DNA of 44,368 nucleotides from Actinomycetota bacterium (GTDB lineage Bacteria; Actinomycetota; Acidimicrobiia; Acidimicrobiales; Ilumatobacteraceae): NCBI GenBank assembly GCA_017856115.1, contig JAFMFM010000012.1:1-44368 (forward strand), in the 5' to 3' direction. The notes beneath the pieces were generated by a model. The model searched no databases, had not been told where the DNA came from, and saw nothing but the letters and a program-made list of their open reading frames with translations. Position 1 is the first letter of the stretch. Each line of letters starts with the position of its first letter. Positions 6,051-44,368 of the stretch are shown in pieces. The position numbers and the translations under genes were made by a program.

Positions 6051-6889
6051 GCACTACACGTTACGACGTCCACCGTCTGGCCCTCGCGTGCGGCAAAGAC
6101 ATCGACGCTCGATGCGGCTGCAACGCTCTCCGCAATGCTCGAGAGCGATGCATCGCTGCGAGACGGATCGTGGTGGAACAAGGCCAACTGCTTCACTCGA
6201 CACGTTTCTGCCACCCAGCGGGCGTAGGCGAACGTCGAATGTCCCCACGACGACTTCGCCTCGAACTCCGCGTCGGTGAATTGCGAGTCGTGAATCAACA
6301 AGTCGGCATCCTCACAGAGTGCCCGGGCGCCATCGGTGAGCGAAAAGTCCGCGCCGGCGGGCTGTTGATGATCGGAAAGATACGTCACCGCGACACCGGC
6401 ATGTGAAACTCGGAATCCGAGCGTCGGTCCAACGTGAGGTACGTACCTACTACGCACCTGCATGTTGCCCACCGTGAAGTCGTCGTCCCCCACTTCATGG
6501 AACACCAGTCGGGCCGCGAACTGTTCGAGTGGCACCGGGAACATCGGTGGTTTGATCTTTTCCAGGAACAACTCCTTCACGGAACGTCCGTCCGGCTGCT
6601 TCGGCGCGTAGATCTCGAAGATGGTGTCGCCGCGCAGAAGCGGCTCGAAGAACGGCAGACCCATGGTGTGGTCGTAATGCAAATGCGTGAGCAGACACAC
6701 CGCATGGAAGTTCGGTGTGCCGTTCACCTGTTTCCCGAAGTAACGCAGCCCGGTACCGAGATCGAAGATGATCGGAATCTCGTCATCCGCACGCAGCGAA
6801 ACACACGAGGTGTTGCCACCGAAGTGTCGAGTCTCGTCGCAGTGGCACGGAGTGGAACCGCGCACGCCGTGGAAAGTCACGTTCAACAT
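6047..6889 (-). CDS. MBL-fold metallohydrolase
   Basis: A 280-residue metallo-beta-lactamase-fold enzyme. The zinc motif is THLHYDHTMGLPFF; further ligands are likely His in VPHVGPT, Asp in YLSDHQQ, and a late HDSQF/GHSTF region. It resembles the group that includes phosphodiesterase and tRNase Z-like hydrolases more than true beta-lactamases. It is the first gene of the five-gene minus-strand operon. A possible -10 (TAGCGT) lies about 11 nt upstream of the ATG. Substrate unknown. Confidence 0.85.
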   Translation of the reverse strand: MLNVTFHGVRGSTPCHCDETRHFGGNTSCVSLRADDEIPIIFDLGTGLRYFGKQVNGTPNFHAVCLLTHLHYDHTMGLPFFEPLLRGDTIFEIYAPKQPDGRSVKELFLEKIKPPMFPVPLEQFAARLVFHEVGDDDFTVGNMQVRSRYVPHVGPTLGFRVSHAGVAVTYLSDHQQPAGADFSLTDGARALCEDADLLIHDSQFTDAEFEAKSSWGHSTFAYARWVAETCRVKQLALFHHDPSRSDASLSSIAESVAAASSVDVFAAREGQTVDVVTCSA

Positions 6890-6985
6890 GGGCTGTGCTG
6901 ACGCTAAGGCGAACGGTGGAAGGCAACCCCTTCGTGCAGCGGTGACGTTCGTCGCAAAGCGCAGGGTTCATCTACTGTGTGAGAC

Positions 6986-7882
6986 ATGTCAACACCGAAA
7001 AAAGGAACGCCGATCACCAGTTCCACGATTCGTGCCGGCGAACTCGACGTCACCTTTCTCGAGTGTGGCTCGGGCCCACTGGCGTTGTGCATGCATGGAT
7101 TTCCGGACTCACCGCACACGTGGCGCCACCTCATGCCCGAATTGGCCGAGCGTGGTTACCGCGCAGTAGCACCGTTTCAGCGCGGTTACTCCCCGACCAC
7201 GGTGGCTCCGTCCGGCGTCTATCAGACGGCGGCGCTGGCTCGTGACGCGAACGCACTGCACGAAGCGCTCGGTGGCGACGGACGTGCGGTGATCATCGGA
7301 CACGATTGGGGCGCACCCACGGTGTGCGGTGCGGCAATCGACCAGCCACATCGCTGGAGCAAGGTCGTGAGCATCGCGGTACCGCCGGGACCTGCGCTCG
7401 GCGTTTCGTTTCTCGGAAATCTGGCGCAAATTCAGCGCAGTTGGTACATGTTCTTCTTTCAACATGCGCTCGCCAACCACGTGGTAGCGGCCAACGACCT
7501 TGCGTTCATCGACATGTTGTGGTCGCAATGGTCGCCCGGTTACGACGCGAGCAGGGATCTTCCGTTCGTCAAGGACGCACTTCGAAGTCCGGAGAATCTG
7601 CAGGCGGCACTCGGCTACTACCGAGCCACATTGGGTGACGGAAAGCGGGATCCGGAACTTGCCACGCTCCAGCAACGCATGGGCAGCGAGTTTCCCACAC
7701 AGCCGATGTTGTACCTGCACGGCGAGGATTGCGGTTGCATCGGCATCGAAGTCGCGAAGGCTGCGCAAGCAACCGCTCCGGCGAACGTTCGCTTCGAATA
7801 CGTGGCGAACGCCGGACACTTCGTGCAAGTGGAGCGACCCGATCACGTGAATCGGCTCATCCTCGATTTCATTGTCGGCTAG
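6986..7882 (+). CDS. Alpha/beta hydrolase, epoxide hydrolase-like
   Basis: A 298-residue alpha/beta hydrolase. The oxyanion motif is HGFPDS, and the nucleophile elbow GHDWGA has Asp107, as in epoxide hydrolases and haloalkane dehalogenases, rather than Ser. The acid is probably Asp248 (HGEDCG) and the base His278 (NAGHFV). Tyr211/Tyr212 in the cap could be the epoxide-polarising tyrosine, which favours epoxide hydrolase. TACTGT at 6973-6978 ends 7 nt before the ATG, predicting a leaderless transcript. It is divergent from the MBL operon. Confidence 0.85.
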   Translation: MSTPKKGTPITSSTIRAGELDVTFLECGSGPLALCMHGFPDSPHTWRHLMPELAERGYRAVAPFQRGYSPTTVAPSGVYQTAALARDANALHEALGGDGRAVIIGHDWGAPTVCGAAIDQPHRWSKVVSIAVPPGPALGVSFLGNLAQIQRSWYMFFFQHALANHVVAANDLAFIDMLWSQWSPGYDASRDLPFVKDALRSPENLQAALGYYRATLGDGKRDPELATLQQRMGSEFPTQPMLYLHGEDCGCIGIEVAKAAQATAPANVRFEYVANAGHFVQVERPDHVNRLILDFIVG

Positions 7883-38913: not shown

Positions 38914-39288
38914 ATGGCGGTGCGCGAACTCGTCGGCGTGTACGACGCCGACGCCACGCTGTGGGGTGAGGTGTCGTATTGGATCGGCGCCCGCCTCGGA
39001 CGGCGCCACTGCGGTCTGTGCGACATCACCCACGGTCTGTTCACCAAGAAGTCGCAGTGGCAGGCATGCGAGACCCGGTTACCGGTGTCTTTTTCCACCC
39101 ATCACCGCAACGACCAGCCCGCCGACGTGCGGGCGTGCATCGGTGGTCGACTGCCCGCAGTGGTGGCCCGCACCGACGATGGCGTCAGATTGATCGCGGC
39201 ACCCGAAGAACTCGCGAGTTGCGGAGGCGACGCCGAGGCGCTACTGACGCTGTTGACGTCGAAGCTCGACGCCGACGACTACAAGTAG
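38914..39288 (+). CDS. Conserved hypothetical protein with CxxC
   Basis: A 124-residue protein with ELVGVYDADATLWGE, a RRHCGLCDITHG segment containing CxxC, and the acidic ending KLDADDYK. I have seen this general pattern as an unannotated actinobacterial family, but no function is known to me. The CxxC-plus-His might bind a metal. Leaderless start: TAGCCT at 38902-38907, 6 nt before the ATG. Its end overlaps the end of the convergent AAA+ gene by 10 bp. Confidence 0.7.
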   Translation: MAVRELVGVYDADATLWGEVSYWIGARLGRRHCGLCDITHGLFTKKSQWQACETRLPVSFSTHHRNDQPADVRACIGGRLPAVVARTDDGVRLIAAPEELASCGGDAEALLTLLTSKLDADDYK

Positions 39289-40682
39289 ACGCCGCGGTGG
39301 GCGCCCGCCTCGGGTACCACGGCATCCGGATCGGGAATCACCTCGGCGGTGATGGTGGTGAGGTCAACGGCGTTCACCTCACCGCTGCGCGTTGCCCAAA
39401 CGGCATGACGACGCACTACTTCATTGAAGAAATTGCGCATCGCTCGACCGTTGCCAAAGCCCCGCCCACGCGGAAGCGAATTCACATGGGCGATTACCTT
39501 CTCACGTGCTTCGACGGTGAGTACGAGCTCGTACTCGGCGAGATACAGATCGAAGATCCGACCCAACTCCTCGGTGGTGTAGTCGGGAAAGTCGATCACT
39601 ACGTCGAAACGACTTCGTAGTCCAGGGTTTGCGTCGAGAAAGCCCTGCATTTCCTTGGGGTATCCCGCAACGATCACCACGATCTCGCCGCGGTTGTCCT
39701 CCATGAACTTGAGCAGTGTCTCGATGGCTTCCGGACCATAACCCTGGTGCTGATGCGCCGTGAGCCCGTATGCCTCGTCGATGAACAACACACCACCCCG
39801 TGCCTCCTCGCACAGTCGCTGGGTCTTGATCGGTGTCTGACCGATGTAGGCGGCGATCAACTTGGAACAGTCGGCCTCCACGACATGGCCCTTTTTCAGG
39901 ATTCCCAAGGCCTTGTAGAGATCGGCCACCAGACGCGCCACGGTGGTCTTGCCGGTGCCCGGATTCCCCGTGAACACAAGGTGCGGTGACTGGTCGATTG
40001 CGGGCATACCTGCAGCAACGCGCGCATTGGTGAATTCACGCGCTGCGACCAGACGTTCCACTTCGAGCTTGACCGGCTCCAACCCCACCAGTCGGCGAAG
40101 GTTTCCGAGGATCTGAGTGGTCGATGCATCGGTCACGCGAACACACGGCTTGCGTGCCCGCGCAGCACTGGTGGAATCACCACCAACATCGTCGACTTCG
40201 TCATCGATGTTTTCGGTGATCCGCTCGTGTTGGCGCCTCGTGGTGCGCTTCTCGGGCTTTTCGCGCAACGGACTCTGTGCTTTCGGCGAGAACTCCGCAG
40301 TTCGCGACAACACCGGACGCTGTTCAGCCACCTGGTACACGATGCTGTCGAGCGACTCGATGAGCTGTTCTGGGCTGATACCGGCAACCGACAACGAATG
40401 TGTTGCGGTGATGGTGTGCTCACCGTTGTTCGATTTGGCCACCTTGAATACCGTGAAGGGCAACTGGCCGTTCAGTCGATTGATGAGATCCTGCTTGCTG
40501 CGCACCAGTTTGGTGGTGCATACGTCCACCGAGAATGCCACCACAAGGTGCCCGTTGAAGCGCTCGTACACTCGGCCGATGAACTCCTCATCCTGGTAAG
40601 AGAACCAGAAATTTCCGCCCACTTCGATGTCGCCGTGCAGGTCGGAAACCATTTCGGTAACGAGTTGCCGTAGATACTCCAC
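39279..40682 (-). CDS. CbxX/CfqX-type AAA+ ATPase with N-terminal YbjN-like domain
   Basis: A 467-residue ATPase. Residues 1-120 form a YbjN/type III chaperone-like domain (FWFSYQDEEFIGRVYERFNG, DLINRLNGQLPFTVFKV). A charged linker of about 60 residues leads to a CbxX/SpoVK/EccA-type AAA+ module: Walker A GNPGTGKT (239-246), Walker B VLFIDE (298-303), then VIVAGYPKEM and the NPGLRSRFD arginine finger. Relatives remodel protein complexes, such as Rubisco activase CbbX and the type VII secretion EccA; no Rubisco or ESX genes are here. GTG 40682 directly follows the sigma-like gene stop, so they are made together. Confidence 0.83.
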   Translation of the reverse strand: MEYLRQLVTEMVSDLHGDIEVGGNFWFSYQDEEFIGRVYERFNGHLVVAFSVDVCTTKLVRSKQDLINRLNGQLPFTVFKVAKSNNGEHTITATHSLSVAGISPEQLIESLDSIVYQVAEQRPVLSRTAEFSPKAQSPLREKPEKRTTRRQHERITENIDDEVDDVGGDSTSAARARKPCVRVTDASTTQILGNLRRLVGLEPVKLEVERLVAAREFTNARVAAGMPAIDQSPHLVFTGNPGTGKTTVARLVADLYKALGILKKGHVVEADCSKLIAAYIGQTPIKTQRLCEEARGGVLFIDEAYGLTAHQHQGYGPEAIETLLKFMEDNRGEIVVIVAGYPKEMQGFLDANPGLRSRFDVVIDFPDYTTEELGRIFDLYLAEYELVLTVEAREKVIAHVNSLPRGRGFGNGRAMRNFFNEVVRRHAVWATRSGEVNAVDLTTITAEVIPDPDAVVPEAGAHRGVYL

Positions 40683-41330
40683 TTATTCGACCTCCCAATC
40701 GTTGTCTTCGAGCATTGCCCTTGCGATCTTCTTTGCCTTGCTGATTTCACGGTTCAGGTGTTCTCGGCCAACACCGAGCACCTTCGCCGCCGCGGTCTGG
40801 GTGAGACCATTGATTTGGGTGAGCACGAGGCCCTCCCACGCCAGCGACGAGATGTTTTCGCGGACCTCTCGGATGATTCCCTCCCGGTAGTCATCCTCAA
40901 CGAAGTCCTCCGGATTCAGGACGGTTCCGGACTGACGAGCAATCAACGATTCGCCGTCGCGATCGCCCTGGACGCCCGGTTCGTCTCCGATCACCGTGCG
41001 TGAACCACGCGCACCGTGGCCGCGTTGGGCGTTGTCGCGACGGCAGTAATCGACGAATGCATTGGCTGCCACCGCGTTCGCCGCATGATCCGCCGTCGGA
41101 TAGCGGTCCATGTAACCACGGACGTTGCGGATCACCTTCTGGATCGCAAAGTTGGCGACATCGGTTGGCTTGTGGCCTCGAAGATTGGCCTTGGCAATCT
41201 TGTAGCCATAGGACTTGCACAGGTGTGCATACACCGCCTCGACGTACTGACGTTGGGCGGGGGTGAGTGGGGTGGCGGGTGTTGCGTTGGTCTCCTTTTT
41301 GCTGGTTGGGTCGTTGGATTGCTGCTTCAT
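40683..41330 (-). CDS. ECF-like RNA polymerase sigma factor
   Basis: A 215-residue sigma-70-like protein. The sigma-2 region is recognisable in DVANFAIQKVIRNVRGYMDR and AANAFVDYCRRDNAQRG, and the sigma-4 helix-turn-helix in GLTQTAAAKVLGVGREHLNREI. The linker between them is longer than usual, and the order region 2-linker-region 4 is kept. It has a good AGAGGA ribosome binding site 6 nt before the ATG. No anti-sigma gene is adjacent; the AAA+ ATPase immediately downstream (zero gap) may play a control role. A diverged phage-like DNA-binding protein is the alternative. Confidence 0.72.
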   Translation of the reverse strand: MKQQSNDPTSKKETNATPATPLTPAQRQYVEAVYAHLCKSYGYKIAKANLRGHKPTDVANFAIQKVIRNVRGYMDRYPTADHAANAVAANAFVDYCRRDNAQRGHGARGSRTVIGDEPGVQGDRDGESLIARQSGTVLNPEDFVEDDYREGIIREVRENISSLAWEGLVLTQINGLTQTAAAKVLGVGREHLNREISKAKKIARAMLEDNDWEVE

Positions 41331-41515
41331 TTCGTCCTCTCTGCTGGTGATGGGCTGTCAGAGAGAGCATGGCAACGGGGTGTTACATAGTATTAGCGTT
41401 TTTACCAATAGCCTGCTTTCTCACCGACATTACGCACACCATGGTCATACTTGTGATGTTTTTGCCGTAAGATAAGGGTCATTGTTCGGAACCGATCACT
41501 ATAGCAGGTACTCTC
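41331..41515. promoter_or_regulatory. Divergent control region of the sigma-AAA+ and NUDIX genes
   Basis: An AT-richer 185-bp region between the divergent starts. On the minus strand TACTAT lies near 41390; on the plus strand TAAGAT (41468-41473) and TATAGC (41500-41505) are possible -10 boxes. No good -35 partner or palindromic operator stands out by eye. If the NUDIX protein acts like NrtR, its operator should be here. Confidence 0.4.
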
Positions 41516-42769
41516 ATGCCCCCACAACCCCGGCGCCACAGATCCTTCGCCCACACCACCAAACGCTCGATGTCTAGCCCATCCCTGTCCCCGCAGGTAA
41601 CTCGCCCAGCCGACTTTCATGTCACGGTTGATGTGGTTCTCCTGAGTCTCCGAAACGACCTCCCCCATATAGGTGTCGTGCAACGCAACCGTCCCGAGGC
41701 CTACATCGACCAGGCCCAACTACAACGGCGCGGCAATCCCCATCTGCCTCGCCGAGTGGAGCCGGTCGATCGCCACCCCCAACACCACTGGGCGCTGCCA
41801 GGTGGCCATGTGGGCAACACCCTCTTGGGGGATGCCTACGGCACAGGATCGTCCCCCGACACCACCCTCGCGCAGGCCGCATTACGAGTACTGCAACGTG
41901 AGACCAATCTTTTGCTTACCGAGGATGACCTTCACCAAGTTGGTGCCTTCGGCGATGCCGATCGCGACCCACGCAGCGGTCGCACCATCTCGGTGGCATA
42001 CGTCGCCGTCGTGGGTGACGATCGCGACCTGGCCCTCCACCCCGACACCCATGTAGGGCATGTGAGCCGCGTGCAGTTTCGACCCGTCGTCGATGTGTTG
42101 GCCCGACCCAACCGACTCGAGTTCGATCATGAAGACATCGTGTTGAAGGCCATTTCTCTCGTTCGCAGTCTTGTGGTCACCACCCCACTCGCCACCAGAT
42201 TCTGTCGCGAGGAGTTCACCCTCGGCGAACTTCGGCGGGTGTACGAAGCACTGTTTCATGAGTCGCTCGATTCCGCTGCCGCAGCAGAATTGCCCGGACA
42301 CGCCGACGTCGTTCGCAAATATCTGAAGACCCTCGAGAAGATCGGTGCGCAGCAGACCCCCGACTTTGAACGCACCATCACCGAACTCGCACAGATGCTT
42401 CCATCGTCGGCGTCCAGAGCGGACTTCGTTGGCGATGACTACACGGTGGAGATGAAGGGCTTTGCCTCGCGATCGGCAGCCCCCGTTGCCGATATTGCGC
42501 GCCAGGCGGAACTGATGGCACGACTCATGCGGCAGAGCAATCGCACGCGGGCCCCGAGACCCCCTCGCTTGATCAAGCCACTCGATCCCACCAACTTTGC
42601 CCGACGCATTCAAAAGCTCAACATCCTGAGCTCCGTTGAGGGCGAATCTCGACCCACGTTCGATCGCTACGGCAAACCTGCTGCTCTCTTTCGACTGAAT
42701 GCCCATCGCGAACTTGCGCCATTCCTGCTGCGTCTCGATGGGCTGGGAAAGAGCGACTCCTCCGAGTAG
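41516..42769 (+). CDS. NUDIX/winged-helix (NrtR-like) regulator, degenerate NUDIX box
   Basis: A 417-residue protein. Residues 34-195 form a NUDIX domain (TVDVVLLSLRNDLPHIGVVQ, HWALPGGHVG), but the catalytic helix reads LRVLQRETNLLL instead of REUxEExGU, so hydrolysis is unlikely. An NrtR-type winged helix follows (EEFTLGELRRVYEALF, residues 232-247) and is split by an insertion of about 105 residues before its last part (PTNFARRIQKLNILSS, RYGKPAALFRL). NrtR-type proteins bind ADP-ribose through an inactive NUDIX domain and repress nearby genes. It is divergent from the sigma/AAA+ unit. The start is uncertain within the first 25 codons. Confidence 0.78.
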   Translation: MPPQPRRHRSFAHTTKRSMSSPSLSPQVTRPADFHVTVDVVLLSLRNDLPHIGVVQRNRPEAYIDQAQLQRRGNPHLPRRVEPVDRHPQHHWALPGGHVGNTLLGDAYGTGSSPDTTLAQAALRVLQRETNLLLTEDDLHQVGAFGDADRDPRSGRTISVAYVAVVGDDRDLALHPDTHVGHVSRVQFRPVVDVLARPNRLEFDHEDIVLKAISLVRSLVVTTPLATRFCREEFTLGELRRVYEALFHESLDSAAAAELPGHADVVRKYLKTLEKIGAQQTPDFERTITELAQMLPSSASRADFVGDDYTVEMKGFASRSAAPVADIARQAELMARLMRQSNRTRAPRPPRLIKPLDPTNFARRIQKLNILSSVEGESRPTFDRYGKPAALFRLNAHRELAPFLLRLDGLGKSDSSE

Positions 42770-42779
42770 CGACGCAAGT

Positions 42780-42829
42780 TCCGGGCAACGCGAGCGTGGG
42801 GGTCGCGCGGGCGTCCGGGCAACGCGAGC
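42780..42829. repeat. 16-bp direct repeat
   Basis: Identical 16-bp copies TCCGGGCAACGCGAGC at 42780-42795 and 42814-42829, spaced 34 bp start to start (about three helical turns). They lie between the NUDIX gene and the small protein gene and could be tandem binding sites. Confidence 0.6.
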
Positions 42830-42889
42830 CCTCCGTCGGGCCGTAGGCACTACTCACATGCTGAGAGGTTCGGTGCGTAGACACTGGCG

Positions 42890-42937
42890 TGGTGCATCTG
42901 GCGGTGCTTTTCTCCTTTCTCCCGCCAGGTGACACCA
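42890..42937 (+). terminator. Two-part stem-loop between NUDIX and clamp-like genes
   Basis: The inner stem CTGGCGG/CCGCCAG (42898-42904 and 42922-42928) has a pyrimidine-rich 17-nt loop, and an outer stem TGGTG/CACCA (42890-42894 and 42933-42937) closes it. There is no U-run after it. It may end the NUDIX transcript or act as RNA structure. Confidence 0.45.
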
Positions 42938-42944
42938 CTGCACT

Positions 42945-42964
42945 ACACCGCTCATCTACGGTGT
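42945..42964 (+). promoter_or_regulatory. Possible operator-like inverted repeat
   Basis: ACACCG (42945-42950) and CGGTGT (42959-42964) form a perfect 6-bp inverted repeat with an 8-bp spacer. It lies 38 bp before the small protein gene start. It could be an operator or a small hairpin in the leader. Confidence 0.35.
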
Positions 42965-43001
42965 CGGCCCTCGCACCCATCCACCCAGCCAGGAGGCACT
43001 G

Positions 43002-43277
43002 ATGACCCCATCCAAACGCACCATTCGCATCTCCGCAGCCGATTTTCGTCGACTGCTGGCGGCAGCAACCGATGTCGACTTCTCGCATGCATTTCCCGGG
43101 GAAATGTCCCATCTCGAGATCGACGAGGTCACCATCACCATCACGCGCTCGGTTTCCGAGACTCCGCAAGATCACCGCTGGATTCAGGAGATTTCCGACC
43201 CGCTCTGTACCACCCCACTGGGCTATCAGCGAGCCCACATTCCTCGAACCGATGTCACCGGGAGCACCCCGCAATGA
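43002..43277 (+). CDS. Small protein paired with the clamp-like gene
   Basis: A 91-residue protein of unknown function. The N-terminal half is regular (RTIRISAADFRRLLAAATD, HLEIDEVTITITRSV), with alternating beta strands and a helix; the C-terminal third is Pro/Thr-rich. It has a perfect AGGAGG ribosome binding site (42991-42996) 5 nt before the ATG. The next gene overlaps by four bases (ATGA), so the two proteins are probably made in step and may interact. Confidence 0.72.
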   Translation: MTPSKRTIRISAADFRRLLAAATDVDFSHAFPGEMSHLEIDEVTITITRSVSETPQDHRWIQEISDPLCTTPLGYQRAHIPRTDVTGSTPQ

Positions 43278-44368
43278 CCACCAACATCGGACTTGTCGAC
43301 TCCACCGAGTTGCGACACATCTTCGAGTCGCTCATGATGTTTCGCTCGGAGGGAGTCAACGTTCCGGGCATCACCGTGTACTGCGAGGGAGGCCGCCGCA
43401 AGTGGTTGGTAACCACGAAGGAGTTCACCATCGTCGTCACCGGTGATGCCGCCGACTTCGCCGGTGCCTACAAGTTGCCACTCACCATCGTGGCGAACGC
43501 GGGCCGCCCACGGGCAGCAGCGGGAGCAGTGGCGTTCACCGTTTGCGATGGCCTGGTCACCGCTACGTCTTCGTATGGCACACAAACGTTGCCCTGCAGT
43601 ACCACTGCGATGCCAACGATTCGGCGCGCAACCGCAGGCCACAACCGCGCCACTGCGCAACTCGGCGGCAAGGAGCTGCTGTACACCATCTTTTCGGGGG
43701 CCAATCCCCCGTTCGAAACCAACATGACCGACGACGAGGACGACGAGCGCACGAACCCGGACCACTTCCTTCTTCGAATTGCCGACGGTCGCCTGCACGT
43801 ATCCAGCGATTGGTCGGGCGCACGCTTGTACGAAATGCGCGCCCACACCACGGCACATACCACGGGCGCCGGGCAGATCAAGGTCGACCCGGACATGCTG
43901 AACATCATCTACAACTGCGTCGACGAGGATGCCACGTGGACGCTGTCGTTCGACGGAAATGAGTCACTCGACATCGTGCTCGAAAGCGACACCCACTACA
44001 TCGTGTCCTCGATGGTCATCGTTTCGGCCGCCAAGTTGCACGAGCGCGTGGTGAAGATTCTTGAGCGCGAGAAGTTCGAGCACCACGCACCTGCGGGTGG
44101 GCCAATCGGGGTTCGCCACGACGGTGTCGTCATTTCGCTCGATTTGTTTCAGCGCGACGGCAGCGATGCATCGCTCGTACGACTTTCGACGGTGGTCACC
44201 AGGAACGCCAACGAGAGCAGCGAATTGCTGCGTGAAATCAACGCGCACAACCAGAACGGGTTGATCACCCGTTTGTGGTTCGATCGCGGATCCGTTCACC
44301 TTGCAATCGACATGTTGCCCGACAACCTCGTGGGCTTGGCGCAGCGAATCCGAATGTTGGCCACCGAG
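43274..44368 (+). CDS. Sliding-clamp (DnaN-like) and YbjN-like domain fusion protein, partial
   Basis: An open frame of 365 codons that runs off the right edge. By eye, residues 1-115 resemble a beta-clamp domain, ending with the typical second half (YKLPLTIVANAGRP, VTATSSYGTQTLP, AMPTI). Residues 120-255 resemble a second clamp domain (FLLRIADGRLHVSSDWSGAR, IKVDPDMLNIIYNCV, ATWTLSFDGNESL). The last 110 residues match a YbjN-like domain (SELLREINAHNQNGLITRLW), as in the AAA+ protein of the same locus. A third clamp domain appears to be replaced. ATG 43274 overlaps the upstream stop. All domain calls need profile searches. Confidence 0.6.
   Translation, partial: MTTNIGLVDSTELRHIFESLMMFRSEGVNVPGITVYCEGGRRKWLVTTKEFTIVVTGDAADFAGAYKLPLTIVANAGRPRAAAGAVAFTVCDGLVTATSSYGTQTLPCSTTAMPTIRRATAGHNRATAQLGGKELLYTIFSGANPPFETNMTDDEDDERTNPDHFLLRIADGRLHVSSDWSGARLYEMRAHTTAHTTGAGQIKVDPDMLNIIYNCVDEDATWTLSFDGNESLDIVLESDTHYIVSSMVIVSAAKLHERVVKILEREKFEHHAPAGGPIGVRHDGVVISLDLFQRDGSDASLVRLSTVVTRNANESSELLREINAHNQNGLITRLWFDRGSVHLAIDMLPDNLVGLAQRIRMLATE

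What the first reader, a model, noticed from the sequence alone, without database searches (positions are those of the whole stretch)
39279..44368. Candidate novel system: sigma factor, YbjN-AAA+ ATPase, NUDIX-wHTH regulator and a clamp-YbjN fusion
Five adjacent genes form two divergent units around a 185-bp control region. One unit is an ECF-like sigma factor joined without a gap to a CbxX-type AAA+ ATPase. The other is an NrtR-like NUDIX regulator, a small protein and a DnaN-like protein. The two large effectors share YbjN-like domains. A ligand-sensing regulator, a dedicated sigma factor, a clamp-like ring and a AAA+ remodeller suggest an inducible module acting on DNA or on a replication/repair complex, perhaps in stress or phage defence. 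I know of no described system with this set.
Basis: partly seen in the sequence, partly recalled or inferred. Interest (0 to 1): 0.85.

Follow-up and report, generated by a model that had tools for sequence, protein, structure and literature searches.

The report
ADP-ribose stress module with DNA clamp
A conserved five-gene cassette in uncultured actinobacteria joins a regulator likely to sense ADP-ribose, a sigma factor, an ATP-driven protein remodeller and a DNA-clamp-like protein fused to a chaperone fold; it looks like an unrecognised branch of predicted defence or repair systems that deal with ADP-ribosylation, and its clamp hints that DNA is where they act.

Summary
The five genes form two divergent units around 185 bp and keep order and chromosomal site in 8 related MAGs (D and E missing in one). 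The module ends at E: a 55-bp overlap with contig C68 places E's last 38 residues there, followed by a convergent DUF554 gene. AlphaFold plus PDB alignment give E a two-domain, PCNA/beta-clamp-like N-terminus (Z 18.6), then a TY-chaperone (YbjN-like) domain; A is a CbbX-type AAA+ with a possible N-terminal TY domain; B is an ECF-like sigma; C is NrtR-like with a degenerate Nudix box. It is not wholly undescribed: relatives of A, B, C and E sit beside ADP-ribosylglycohydrolase (ARG), phosphatase, vWA or ARPP genes, the ARG-centred systems predicted in PMC9503650 (2022). No ARG was found in four genomes of the genus, but ARPP-1 is there at another locus. That paper's main text names no clamp, sigma factor or AAA+. 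Best reading: an ARG-less, probably ADP-ribose-induced branch in which TY-chaperones on a clamp-like ring and an AAA+ hexamer handle damaged clients. Linkage and the clamp and AAA+ folds are supported; ligand, regulation, ring formation and target are inferred. New variant of a known kind; interest 0.64.

The parts
39279..40682 (-). A: 467-aa CbbX-type AAA+ ATPase with a possible N-terminal TY-chaperone (YbjN-like) domain (res. ~1-126) and a low-confidence linker
   Evidence: Pfam AAA 9.1e-18, AAA_lid_6; model residues 185-456 vs CbbX 3syk_A Z 26.4, rmsd 3.6, 40% id; N-term element order a-b-b-b-b-a-b-b-a, model pLDDT 73.8; hhalign to TY-Chap set prob 38%
40683..41330 (-). B: 215-aa diverged ECF-like sigma factor; its stop codon abuts the start of A
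   Evidence: TIGR02937 9.1e-8, residues 35-204, below cut-off; relative L029 Sigma70_r4_2 2.6e-7 and r4 4e-7 over cut-off, r2 0.0017; PHROG sigma factor 5.2e-5
41331..41515 (.). 185-bp divergent control region between B and C
   Evidence: 87% mean column identity in four genomes of the genus, over an alignment that includes 30 bp of each flank
41516..42769 (+). C: 417-aa Nudix sensor + NrtR-type winged helix; Nudix box degenerate
   Evidence: NrtR_WHD 4.1e-9, NUDIX 1.6e-5; NF050029 4.3e-12, below cut-off; alignment: RVLxRETN in four genus sequences, RELxEET in L067, L068, L072
42943..42966 (.). imperfect inverted repeat (CTACACCG-N8-CGGTGTCG) upstream of D; possible operator or RNA hairpin
   Evidence: present in 3 of 3 sequences aligned (window, G009, G048), with shorter exact arms in G009
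43002..43277 (+). D: 91-aa small protein of no known family, start/stop-coupled to E
   Evidence: a small same-strand ORF ends within 3 nt of E's start in 16 of 16 E loci first chosen and in 5 of the 16 further E genes; sequence relatives, no clear similarity in L067/L068/L072
43274..44368 (+). E: two-domain sliding-clamp fold (res. 1-247) fused to a TY-chaperone domain (res. ~252-365+); last 38 residues lie on contig G000:C68

Best explanation
The cassette is an ARG-less branch of the predicted ARG/ARPP-centred ADP-ribose systems. Supported here: gene set, synteny, clamp fold of E and CbbX fold of A, linkage of A, B, C and E relatives to ARG/ARPP/phosphatase/vWA genes, no ARG, Macro or NADAR match in four genus genomes, ARPP-1 at a second locus. 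Inferred: C represses the divergent B-A and C-D-E promoters until ADP-ribose (or a related nucleotide released during ADP-ribosylation damage or NAD+ attack) binds its non-hydrolysing Nudix domain; sigma B then amplifies expression; the TY-chaperone domains of E and A bind modified or misfolded client proteins, E holding them on a clamp-like ring (probably at DNA or the replisome, with D as an adaptor), and the CbbX-like A hexamer threads and unfolds or releases them. The system thus repairs or clears clients after an ADP-ribosylation attack, most likely by phage.
For: Relatives of C and E flank ARG-vWA (L067) or ARG-phosphatase (L068) genes. Relatives of A and B flank ARG in L123 and L125 (ARG-DSPc in L125), and B flanks ARG-DSPc in L121. 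L140 and L141 hold B, C, HDAC, D-like, E, vWA, DSP phosphatase and ARPP together by my own profiles; in L141 Pfam confirms ARPP-1 6.2e-63, HDAC 3.7e-28 and sigma over cut-off, DSPc and vWA below cut-off. Non-genus B loci found by B searches: 10 of 15 carry another part; E loci found by E searches: 8 of 15; non-genus C loci: 17 of 68 (profiles partly built from these loci). ARPP-1 in 4 of 4 genus genomes at another locus and in 0 of 14 control genomes; ARG 0 of 4. Clamp. CbbX-type AAA+. In the most distant relatives with the cassette (L136, L137) B, D and E are less conserved than every flanking gene compared. Nudix-TF, TY-chaperone and ARPP with ARG are the predicted system of PMC9503650 section 3.8 (section read whole).
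Against: No ARG, Macro or NADAR match in the four genus genomes, so no known ADP-ribose-removing enzyme was found and ADP-ribose as inducer rests on C's family alone. The locus is a fixed chromosomal site in the relatives seen. PADLOC gives only weak AAA+ hits to A (best IetA 1.7e-7) and none to B-E, nor to the two ARG proteins scanned. 7 of 15 E loci and 5 of 15 B loci show no other part, some because contigs are short; the two full-length E relatives outside the class (L251, L252) have no other part near them. Fast evolution is not clear in nearer relatives, where some flanks (thioesterase 59-81%, est3282 61-71%, rieske4 55-70%) are no better conserved than B and E. The five-gene set as such was seen only in close relatives: A's N-terminal domain was found in 4 of 295 class genomes. 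A's TY domain is weakly supported.
Confidence: 0.48

Rival explanations
1. Housekeeping stress regulon: a vertically inherited chaperone/sigma module responding to NAD+ redox or nucleotide imbalance, with no role in conflict.
For: Same chromosomal site in 8 related MAGs, beside xthA and/or DUF554 wherever the contig reaches that far; NrtR-type regulators classically control NAD metabolism (established knowledge); several flanking genes are as diverged as B and E in nearer relatives; scans of viral contigs with E and B, which reach close relatives only, found none.
Against: In L136 and L137 B, D and E are less conserved than all flanking genes compared, and D/E are missing in one relative; parts recombine with ARG/ARPP/vWA/phosphatase genes elsewhere.
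Confidence: 0.27
2. A and B are a sigma/anti-sigma-like pair: the TY-chaperone domain of A sequesters or remodels sigma B (as T3SS chaperones regulate transcription factors), and E is the only effector.
For: B abuts A in the window and precedes A in L029, L123 and L125; T3SS-type chaperones that regulate transcription are discussed in PMC5398634 (passages seen). No anti-sigma gene was recognised next to B, though none was searched for specifically.
Against: B also occurs without a recognised A (L121, L122, L124, L140, L141), so A is not an obligate partner. Not tested physically.
Confidence: 0.2
3. E's clamp fold is only a protein-protein scaffold that never encircles DNA; the module acts purely on proteins.
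For: Inner-face helices of E sum to net charge -1, so no strong DNA-binding signature is seen; the role PMC9503650 predicts for these chaperones is protein-directed.
Against: The same crude measure gives only +2 for the genus's genuine DnaN (helices picked from recalled beta-clamp structure), so it hardly discriminates; fold match to DNA clamps is strong.
Confidence: 0.4
4. Chance neighbours: two unrelated operons side by side.
For: B/A and C/E are on opposite strands and also occur separately in other genomes.
Against: Conserved order and site in relatives with strongly diverged sequences; C and B are also divergent neighbours in L122, L124, L140, L141 and L143, which lie outside the window's group of relatives.
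Confidence: 0.03

Closest known systems
ARG-centred ADP-ribose systems (PMC9503650, 2022, section 3.8; authors, recalled: Iyer, Burroughs, Aravind)
   Same: Nudix-wHTH regulator and TY-chaperone; relatives of A, B, C and E sit beside ARG, DSP phosphatase, vWA or ARPP; the genus keeps ARPP-1 at another locus
   Different: No ARG or phosphatase at this locus; adds an ECF-like sigma factor, a CbbX-type AAA+ with possible TY domain, a clamp-TY fusion and a small coupled protein; 'sigma', 'AAA', 'clamp', 'DnaN' and 'PCNA' do not occur in that paper's main text; its figures and supplements could not be read here
DnaN (beta clamp) / PCNA
   Same: Clamp fold over E residues 1-247; profile picks up a DnaN by sequence
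   Different: Two clamp domains as in PCNA rather than three as in DnaN, plus a C-terminal TY-chaperone; the genus has a separate true DnaN and PF02767 at E<=1 matches only that
CbbX / SpoVK / EccA AAA+ family
   Same: AAA+ core, 40% identity to CbbX over 269 residues
   Different: Scores 207-252 bits against equivalog cut-offs of 423-467; possible TY-like N-terminal domain; no such context among the neighbouring genes seen (Rubisco was not searched for)
NrtR/AraR Nudix regulators
   Same: Nudix domain + NrtR winged helix over cut-off
   Different: 417 aa with insertions; Nudix box degenerate in the genus; 46 bits against the NF050029 cut-off of 400
YbjN / DR1245 / T3SS class I chaperones
   Same: a-b-b-b-a-b-b-a core order, plus one extra strand, in E's C-terminus and A's N-terminus (topology from PMC3575483, passages seen)
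   Different: Fused to clamp or AAA+ rather than free-standing

Membership tests
ARG-centred ADP-ribose system (PMC9503650) | ARG (PF03747) gene in the neighbourhood | tested here: not met
   none at the locus; 0 of 4 genomes of the genus have PF03747 at E<=0.001
ARG-centred ADP-ribose system (PMC9503650) | Nudix- or WYL-sensor one-component regulator | tested here: met
   C: NUDIX + NrtR_WHD, both over cut-off
ARG-centred ADP-ribose system (PMC9503650) | predicted peptide-binding chaperone (TY-Chap, vWA, SseB) | tested here: met
   E: PF22551 0.0015 itself, below cut-off; over cut-off in relatives L025 8.4e-17, L251 1.5e-16; 0.017 in L067; TY element order in the model
ARG-centred ADP-ribose system (PMC9503650) | coupled rhodanese-type/DSP phosphatase | tested here: not met
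   none among the five genes, nor in the flanking genes scanned: xthA, the 124-aa gene, DUF554
ARG-centred ADP-ribose system (PMC9503650) | ARPP | tested here: inconclusive
   not at the locus but elsewhere in 4 of 4 genus genomes
ARG-centred ADP-ribose system (PMC9503650) | rapid sequence evolution | tested here: inconclusive
   B, D, E below every flank compared in L136 and L137, but not below the fastest flanks in nearer relatives
Sliding clamp (DnaN/PCNA) | clamp fold | tested here: met
   Z 18.6, rmsd 2.8 over 213 residues, on a predicted model
Sliding clamp (DnaN/PCNA) | three-domain bacterial beta-clamp architecture | tested here: not met
   two clamp domains then TY; PF02767 at E<=1 finds only DnaN on C52
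Sliding clamp (DnaN/PCNA) | ring formation and DNA encirclement | not testable with these tools
   no multimer prediction; charge check indiscriminate
ECF sigma factor | sigma-70 regions 2 and 4 | tested here: inconclusive
   B: TIGR02937 31.9 bits vs cut-off 42.9; relatives L029 (region 4) and L141 (Sigma70_r4, Sigma70_ECF) over Pfam cut-offs
NrtR regulator | NrtR winged helix with Nudix sensor | tested here: met
   PF21906 36.9 bits vs 27; PF00293 25.4 vs 21.1
NrtR regulator | ADP-ribose as ligand | not testable with these tools
   needs a binding assay
CbbX/SpoVK/EccA | equivalog score | tested here: not met
   all three below cut-off

The most novel reading that the evidence does not exclude
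Bacteria carry a second, two-domain (PCNA-like) sliding clamp whose tool-belt is a built-in peptide-binding chaperone, expressed on an ADP-ribose signal. It would place chaperones, and in relatives ARG/ARPP/phosphatases, on DNA. If so, the substrate of the ARG/ARPP systems is DNA-bound: ADP-ribosylated DNA or replisome proteins, with a TY-CbbX hexamer pulling clients off the ring and D acting as a clamp-binding adaptor (D-like proteins in L023, L139, L140 and L141, one clade, carry DLALLF, and L143 QLALVF, like the recalled beta-clamp-binding consensus).
Probability: 0.22. Interest if true: 0.88.

Novelty: new variant of a known kind. Interest (0 to 1): 0.64.

Why it matters
The ARG/ARPP systems were predicted to reverse ADP-ribosylation of host macromolecules, but which macromolecule is not known. 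A clamp fused to one of their chaperone domains gives a direct, testable hint that DNA or the replisome is the site of action. The finding also adds parts not named in the main text that predicted the systems (ECF-like sigma, CbbX-type AAA+, clamp-TY with coupled small protein), and offers a bacterial two-domain clamp besides DnaN.

Tried and rejected
Five independent novel genes: rejected, relatives of A, B, C and E link to ARG/ARPP neighbourhoods. More module genes to the right: rejected; C68 overlaps the window end by 55 bp and continues with a convergent DUF554 gene. PF10722 (YbjN) matches only another locus of the own genome, on C12, and not this module; PF22551 is the nearer model. PDB sequence search with the E profile and with A's N-terminal profile gave nothing significant. 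hhalign of E against DnaN: probability 9%, E 0.0037, though co-linear with DnaN's last domains; the structure match and the DnaN hit carry the claim. No model of an isolated TY domain was made: the rows shown by VIA-align were clamps for E and AAA+ chains for A, so the absence of a YbjN structure says nothing. Inner-helix charge: E -1, DnaN +2, no discrimination. ECF-type promoter motif upstream of B, C and ARPP: matched only C of G048 and was dropped. Relatives of E and B in viral contigs by single-protein scans: none, which find close relatives only. PADLOC and NCBIfam: A has weak hits to the anti-phage ATPase IetA/IteA (1.7e-7, 1.9e-7; far below the NCBIfam cut-off) and to other AAA+ families, also PHROG clamp loaders (4.7e-12), which I read as generic AAA+ similarity.

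Rows left out of the counts: loci whose E or B score was weaker than 1e-15 (such as L031, L070, L073, L075-L079), the genus itself, duplicate records (L129, L142, L149, L160). From its totals (B 13 of 18, E 13 of 20) I then took out loci found through C or ARPP rather than through B or E (L140, L141, L143; L139-L141, L150, L230), giving 10 of 15 and 8 of 15. Some loci share a genus or genome (L122/L124, L123/L125, L126/L127), and stretches differ in length, several under 6 kb. L251 and L252, fetched later, have no other part and are not in the 15. The C loci are the best 80 of 262 confirmed, less genus and duplicates. Genome searches scored only the best few candidates per genome, so their tallies are lower bounds. 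Of the 396 genomes, 19 matched: by match range 8 carry clamp plus TY, 10 are TY-type matches and one (G621) is DnaN plus a short match.

Full report
1. What is there. The window is the whole contig C26 of a 1.67-Mb MAG, 95% complete. At its right end lie five genes: A 39279-40682(-), B 40683-41330(-), C 41516-42769(+), D 43002-43277(+), E from 43274(+) to the contig end. B's stop codon abuts A's start, D and E overlap as ATGA, and B and C are separated by 185 bp; an alignment of this stretch with 30 bp of each flank has 87% mean column identity in four genomes of the genus. Contig C68 of the same MAG overlaps the window's end exactly by 55 bp on its reverse strand; there E runs on for 38 residues and stops, and a convergent DUF554 gene follows. 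The module therefore ends with E.

2. Conservation. The same cassette stands at the same chromosomal site in eight related MAGs (L130-L137; L138 is a second contig of the MAG of L136). A, B and C are present in 8 of 8 (for L133 = G009, A lies on another contig, L128), D and E in 7 of 8 (L134 = G032 lacks them). The DUF554 side was seen in 7 of 8 (the contig of L132 ends inside E), the xthA side in L134-L137 and, for G009, by inspection in L128; A, B or E are cut by contig ends in L130-L133. Protein identity to the window is 34-86% for B and 40-81% for E (L138 included), against 81-87% for xthA, 82-89% for DUF554 and 89-94% for glpX. But other flanks are also diverged: thioesterase 59-81%, est3282 61-71%, rieske4 55-70%. 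Only in L136 and L137 are B, D and E all less conserved than every flank compared. Fast evolution is therefore suggested, not shown. In L137 A and E each appear split between two frames.

3. What the proteins are. E: the model has mean pLDDT 85.7. Residues 1-247 align with sliding clamps, best Z 18.6, rmsd 2.8 over 213 residues with an archaeal PCNA, and with residues 123-363 of E. coli beta at Z 18.5; Foldseek's best hit is a beta subunit, 2.5e-11. By sequence alone, the family profile matched a genuine DnaN (PF00712, PF02767 and PF02768 all present) in one genome at 1.1e-9. The genus has its own DnaN elsewhere and PF02767 at E<=1 does not match E. After the clamp come a-b-b-b-b-a-b-b-a elements, the TY-chaperone order with one extra strand (topology of DR1245/YbjN/T3SS chaperones from PMC3575483, passages seen). 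PF22551 TY-Chap1 scores 0.0015 in E, 8.4e-17 in L025 and 1.5e-16 in L251, but only 0.017 in L067. Two clamp domains per chain is the PCNA pattern; bacterial beta has three (PMC8357120, abstract).

4. A: residues 185-456 match CbbX (Z 26.4, 40% identity), but CbbX, SpoVK and EccA equivalog cut-offs are not met. The N-terminal 126 residues have the same element order as E's C-terminus; profile comparison with TY domains gives 38% probability. I treat that as suggestive. B: TIGR02937 sigma70-ECF 9.1e-8 over residues 35-204, below its cut-off; relatives L029 and L141 pass Pfam sigma cut-offs. C: Nudix + NrtR winged helix, NF050029 'ADPR responsive transcriptional repressor' 4.3e-12 but far below its equivalog cut-off. 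The Nudix box reads RVLxRETN in the four genus sequences compared and RELxEET in L067, L068 and L072, so catalysis looks lost while sensing may be kept. D: no family found. A small same-strand ORF ends within 3 nt of E's start in 16 of 16 E loci that I first chose (8 of the window's group, 8 others) and in 5 of the 16 further E genes (E starts were partly my choice). D relatives by sequence reach L143, where C and B are also present; the small proteins of L067, L068 and L072 show no clear similarity.

5. What it belongs to. PMC9503650 section 3.8 (read whole) predicts systems centred on an ADP-ribosylglycohydrolase (ARG), with a Nudix- or WYL-type repressor, phosphatase, TY-chaperones, vWA and ARPP, meant to counter viral ADP-ribosylation. 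Relatives of our genes sit in such neighbourhoods: Nudix-TF/ARG-phosphatase/E in L068, Nudix-TF/ARG-vWA/E in L067; ARG, B and A in that order in L123 and L125 (with a further gene between B and A in L125), ARG and B in L121; B, C, HDAC, D-like, E, vWA, DSP phosphatase and ARPP together in L140 and L141. With profiles of my own, partly built from these loci, 10 of 15 non-genus B loci found by B searches and 8 of 15 E loci found by E searches carry at least one other part, against 17 of 68 non-genus C loci. Against this, the two full-length E relatives outside the class (L251, L252) have none nearby. C and B are divergent neighbours in L122, L124, L140, L141 and L143 too.

6. What is missing. 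ARG is not found in any of the four genus genomes searched, nor Macro nor NADAR. ARPP-1, however, is present in 4 of 4 at another locus (G000:C8:52521-53402) and in 0 of 14 control genomes. So the genus keeps regulator, sigma, chaperones and ARPP and has lost, or never had, a recognisable glycohydrolase; the MAGs are 87-95% complete, so absence is not certain. By the strict features this is not an ARG-centred system; it shares its parts and may work like one.

7. Mechanism. Supported: gene set, synteny, clamp and AAA+ folds, linkage, degenerate Nudix box. Inferred: C represses both divergent units; an ADP-ribose-type ligand lifts repression; B amplifies; E's TY domain and A's TY domain bind modified or unfolded clients; E positions them on a clamp-like ring; A, as CbbX is known to do (established knowledge), threads a peptide through its pore and remodels the client. 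Whether the ring closes, whether it holds DNA and whether the signal is phage-borne are open. YbjN-type proteins can bind DNA-repair proteins (DR1245 binds the ssDNA-binding DdrB; PMC3575483, passages), which makes a DNA-side role reasonable but proves nothing here.

8. Novelty. The term TY-Chap is in two papers of the library: PMC9503650 and an unrelated energy paper. Searches combining sliding clamp with YbjN, ARG with Nudix/sigma/clamp/anti-phage, DNA ADP-ribosylation with ARG and clamp, CbxX with sigma factor and defense, and clamp-like proteins gave no paper that, by its listing, describes this set (listings only). The library lacks most subscription papers and all bioRxiv preprints. In PMC9503650's main text, 'sigma', 'AAA', 'clamp', 'DnaN' and 'PCNA' do not occur. 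I therefore call it a new variant of a known kind, with the clamp-TY fusion as its real surprise.

Noticed in passing
L141:11087-11938, L025:3836-5245, L067:1200-1835, L127:11706-12659, L230:6089-7030, L231:5708-6595: A histone-deacetylase-fold enzyme (PF00850 by Pfam in L141, L025, L067 and L127; by my own profile in L230 and L231) recurs beside ARG/ARPP/vWA or Nudix-TF genes; PMC9503650 has 'histone deacetylase' once, in a reference title. It might act on an acetylated ADP-ribose or a polyamine.
   Followed up: partly
L226:7298-7945 and 6250-7353: Near ARPP-1 in the window's own genome lie a protein that looks sigma-region-2-like to the eye and a coupled downstream gene; Pfam found nothing in either. 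A similar-looking pair is near ARPP in L230.
   Followed up: partly
L023:1848-2051, L139:3053-3256, L140:6500-6703, L141:12758-13156, L143:3006-3341: D-like proteins carry DLALLF or QLALVF just before a conserved TxPxGY motif, resembling the beta-clamp-binding consensus (recalled, not from a call); not in D of the window's group.
   Followed up: partly
window 42943-42966: Inverted repeat upstream of D, perfect 9-bp arms in G048; operator or hairpin unknown.
   Followed up: partly
L071:6314-8122, L230:4294-5982: TY-Chap1 proteins fused to a C-terminal DUF3293 domain.
   Followed up: no
L134 (CAMAWR010000016.1): A public MAG record titled 'Bifidobacterium breve' holds the same A-B-C genes and synteny as the window; the organism label looks wrong.
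   Followed up: no
L136 and L138 (RFOJ01): One MAG holds two diverged copies of the cassette region on two contigs (L138 cut), suggesting mixed strains or two copies.
   Followed up: no
window 38914-39288: Conserved 124-aa protein with no Pfam family between xthA and A, also in L134 and L135.
   Followed up: no
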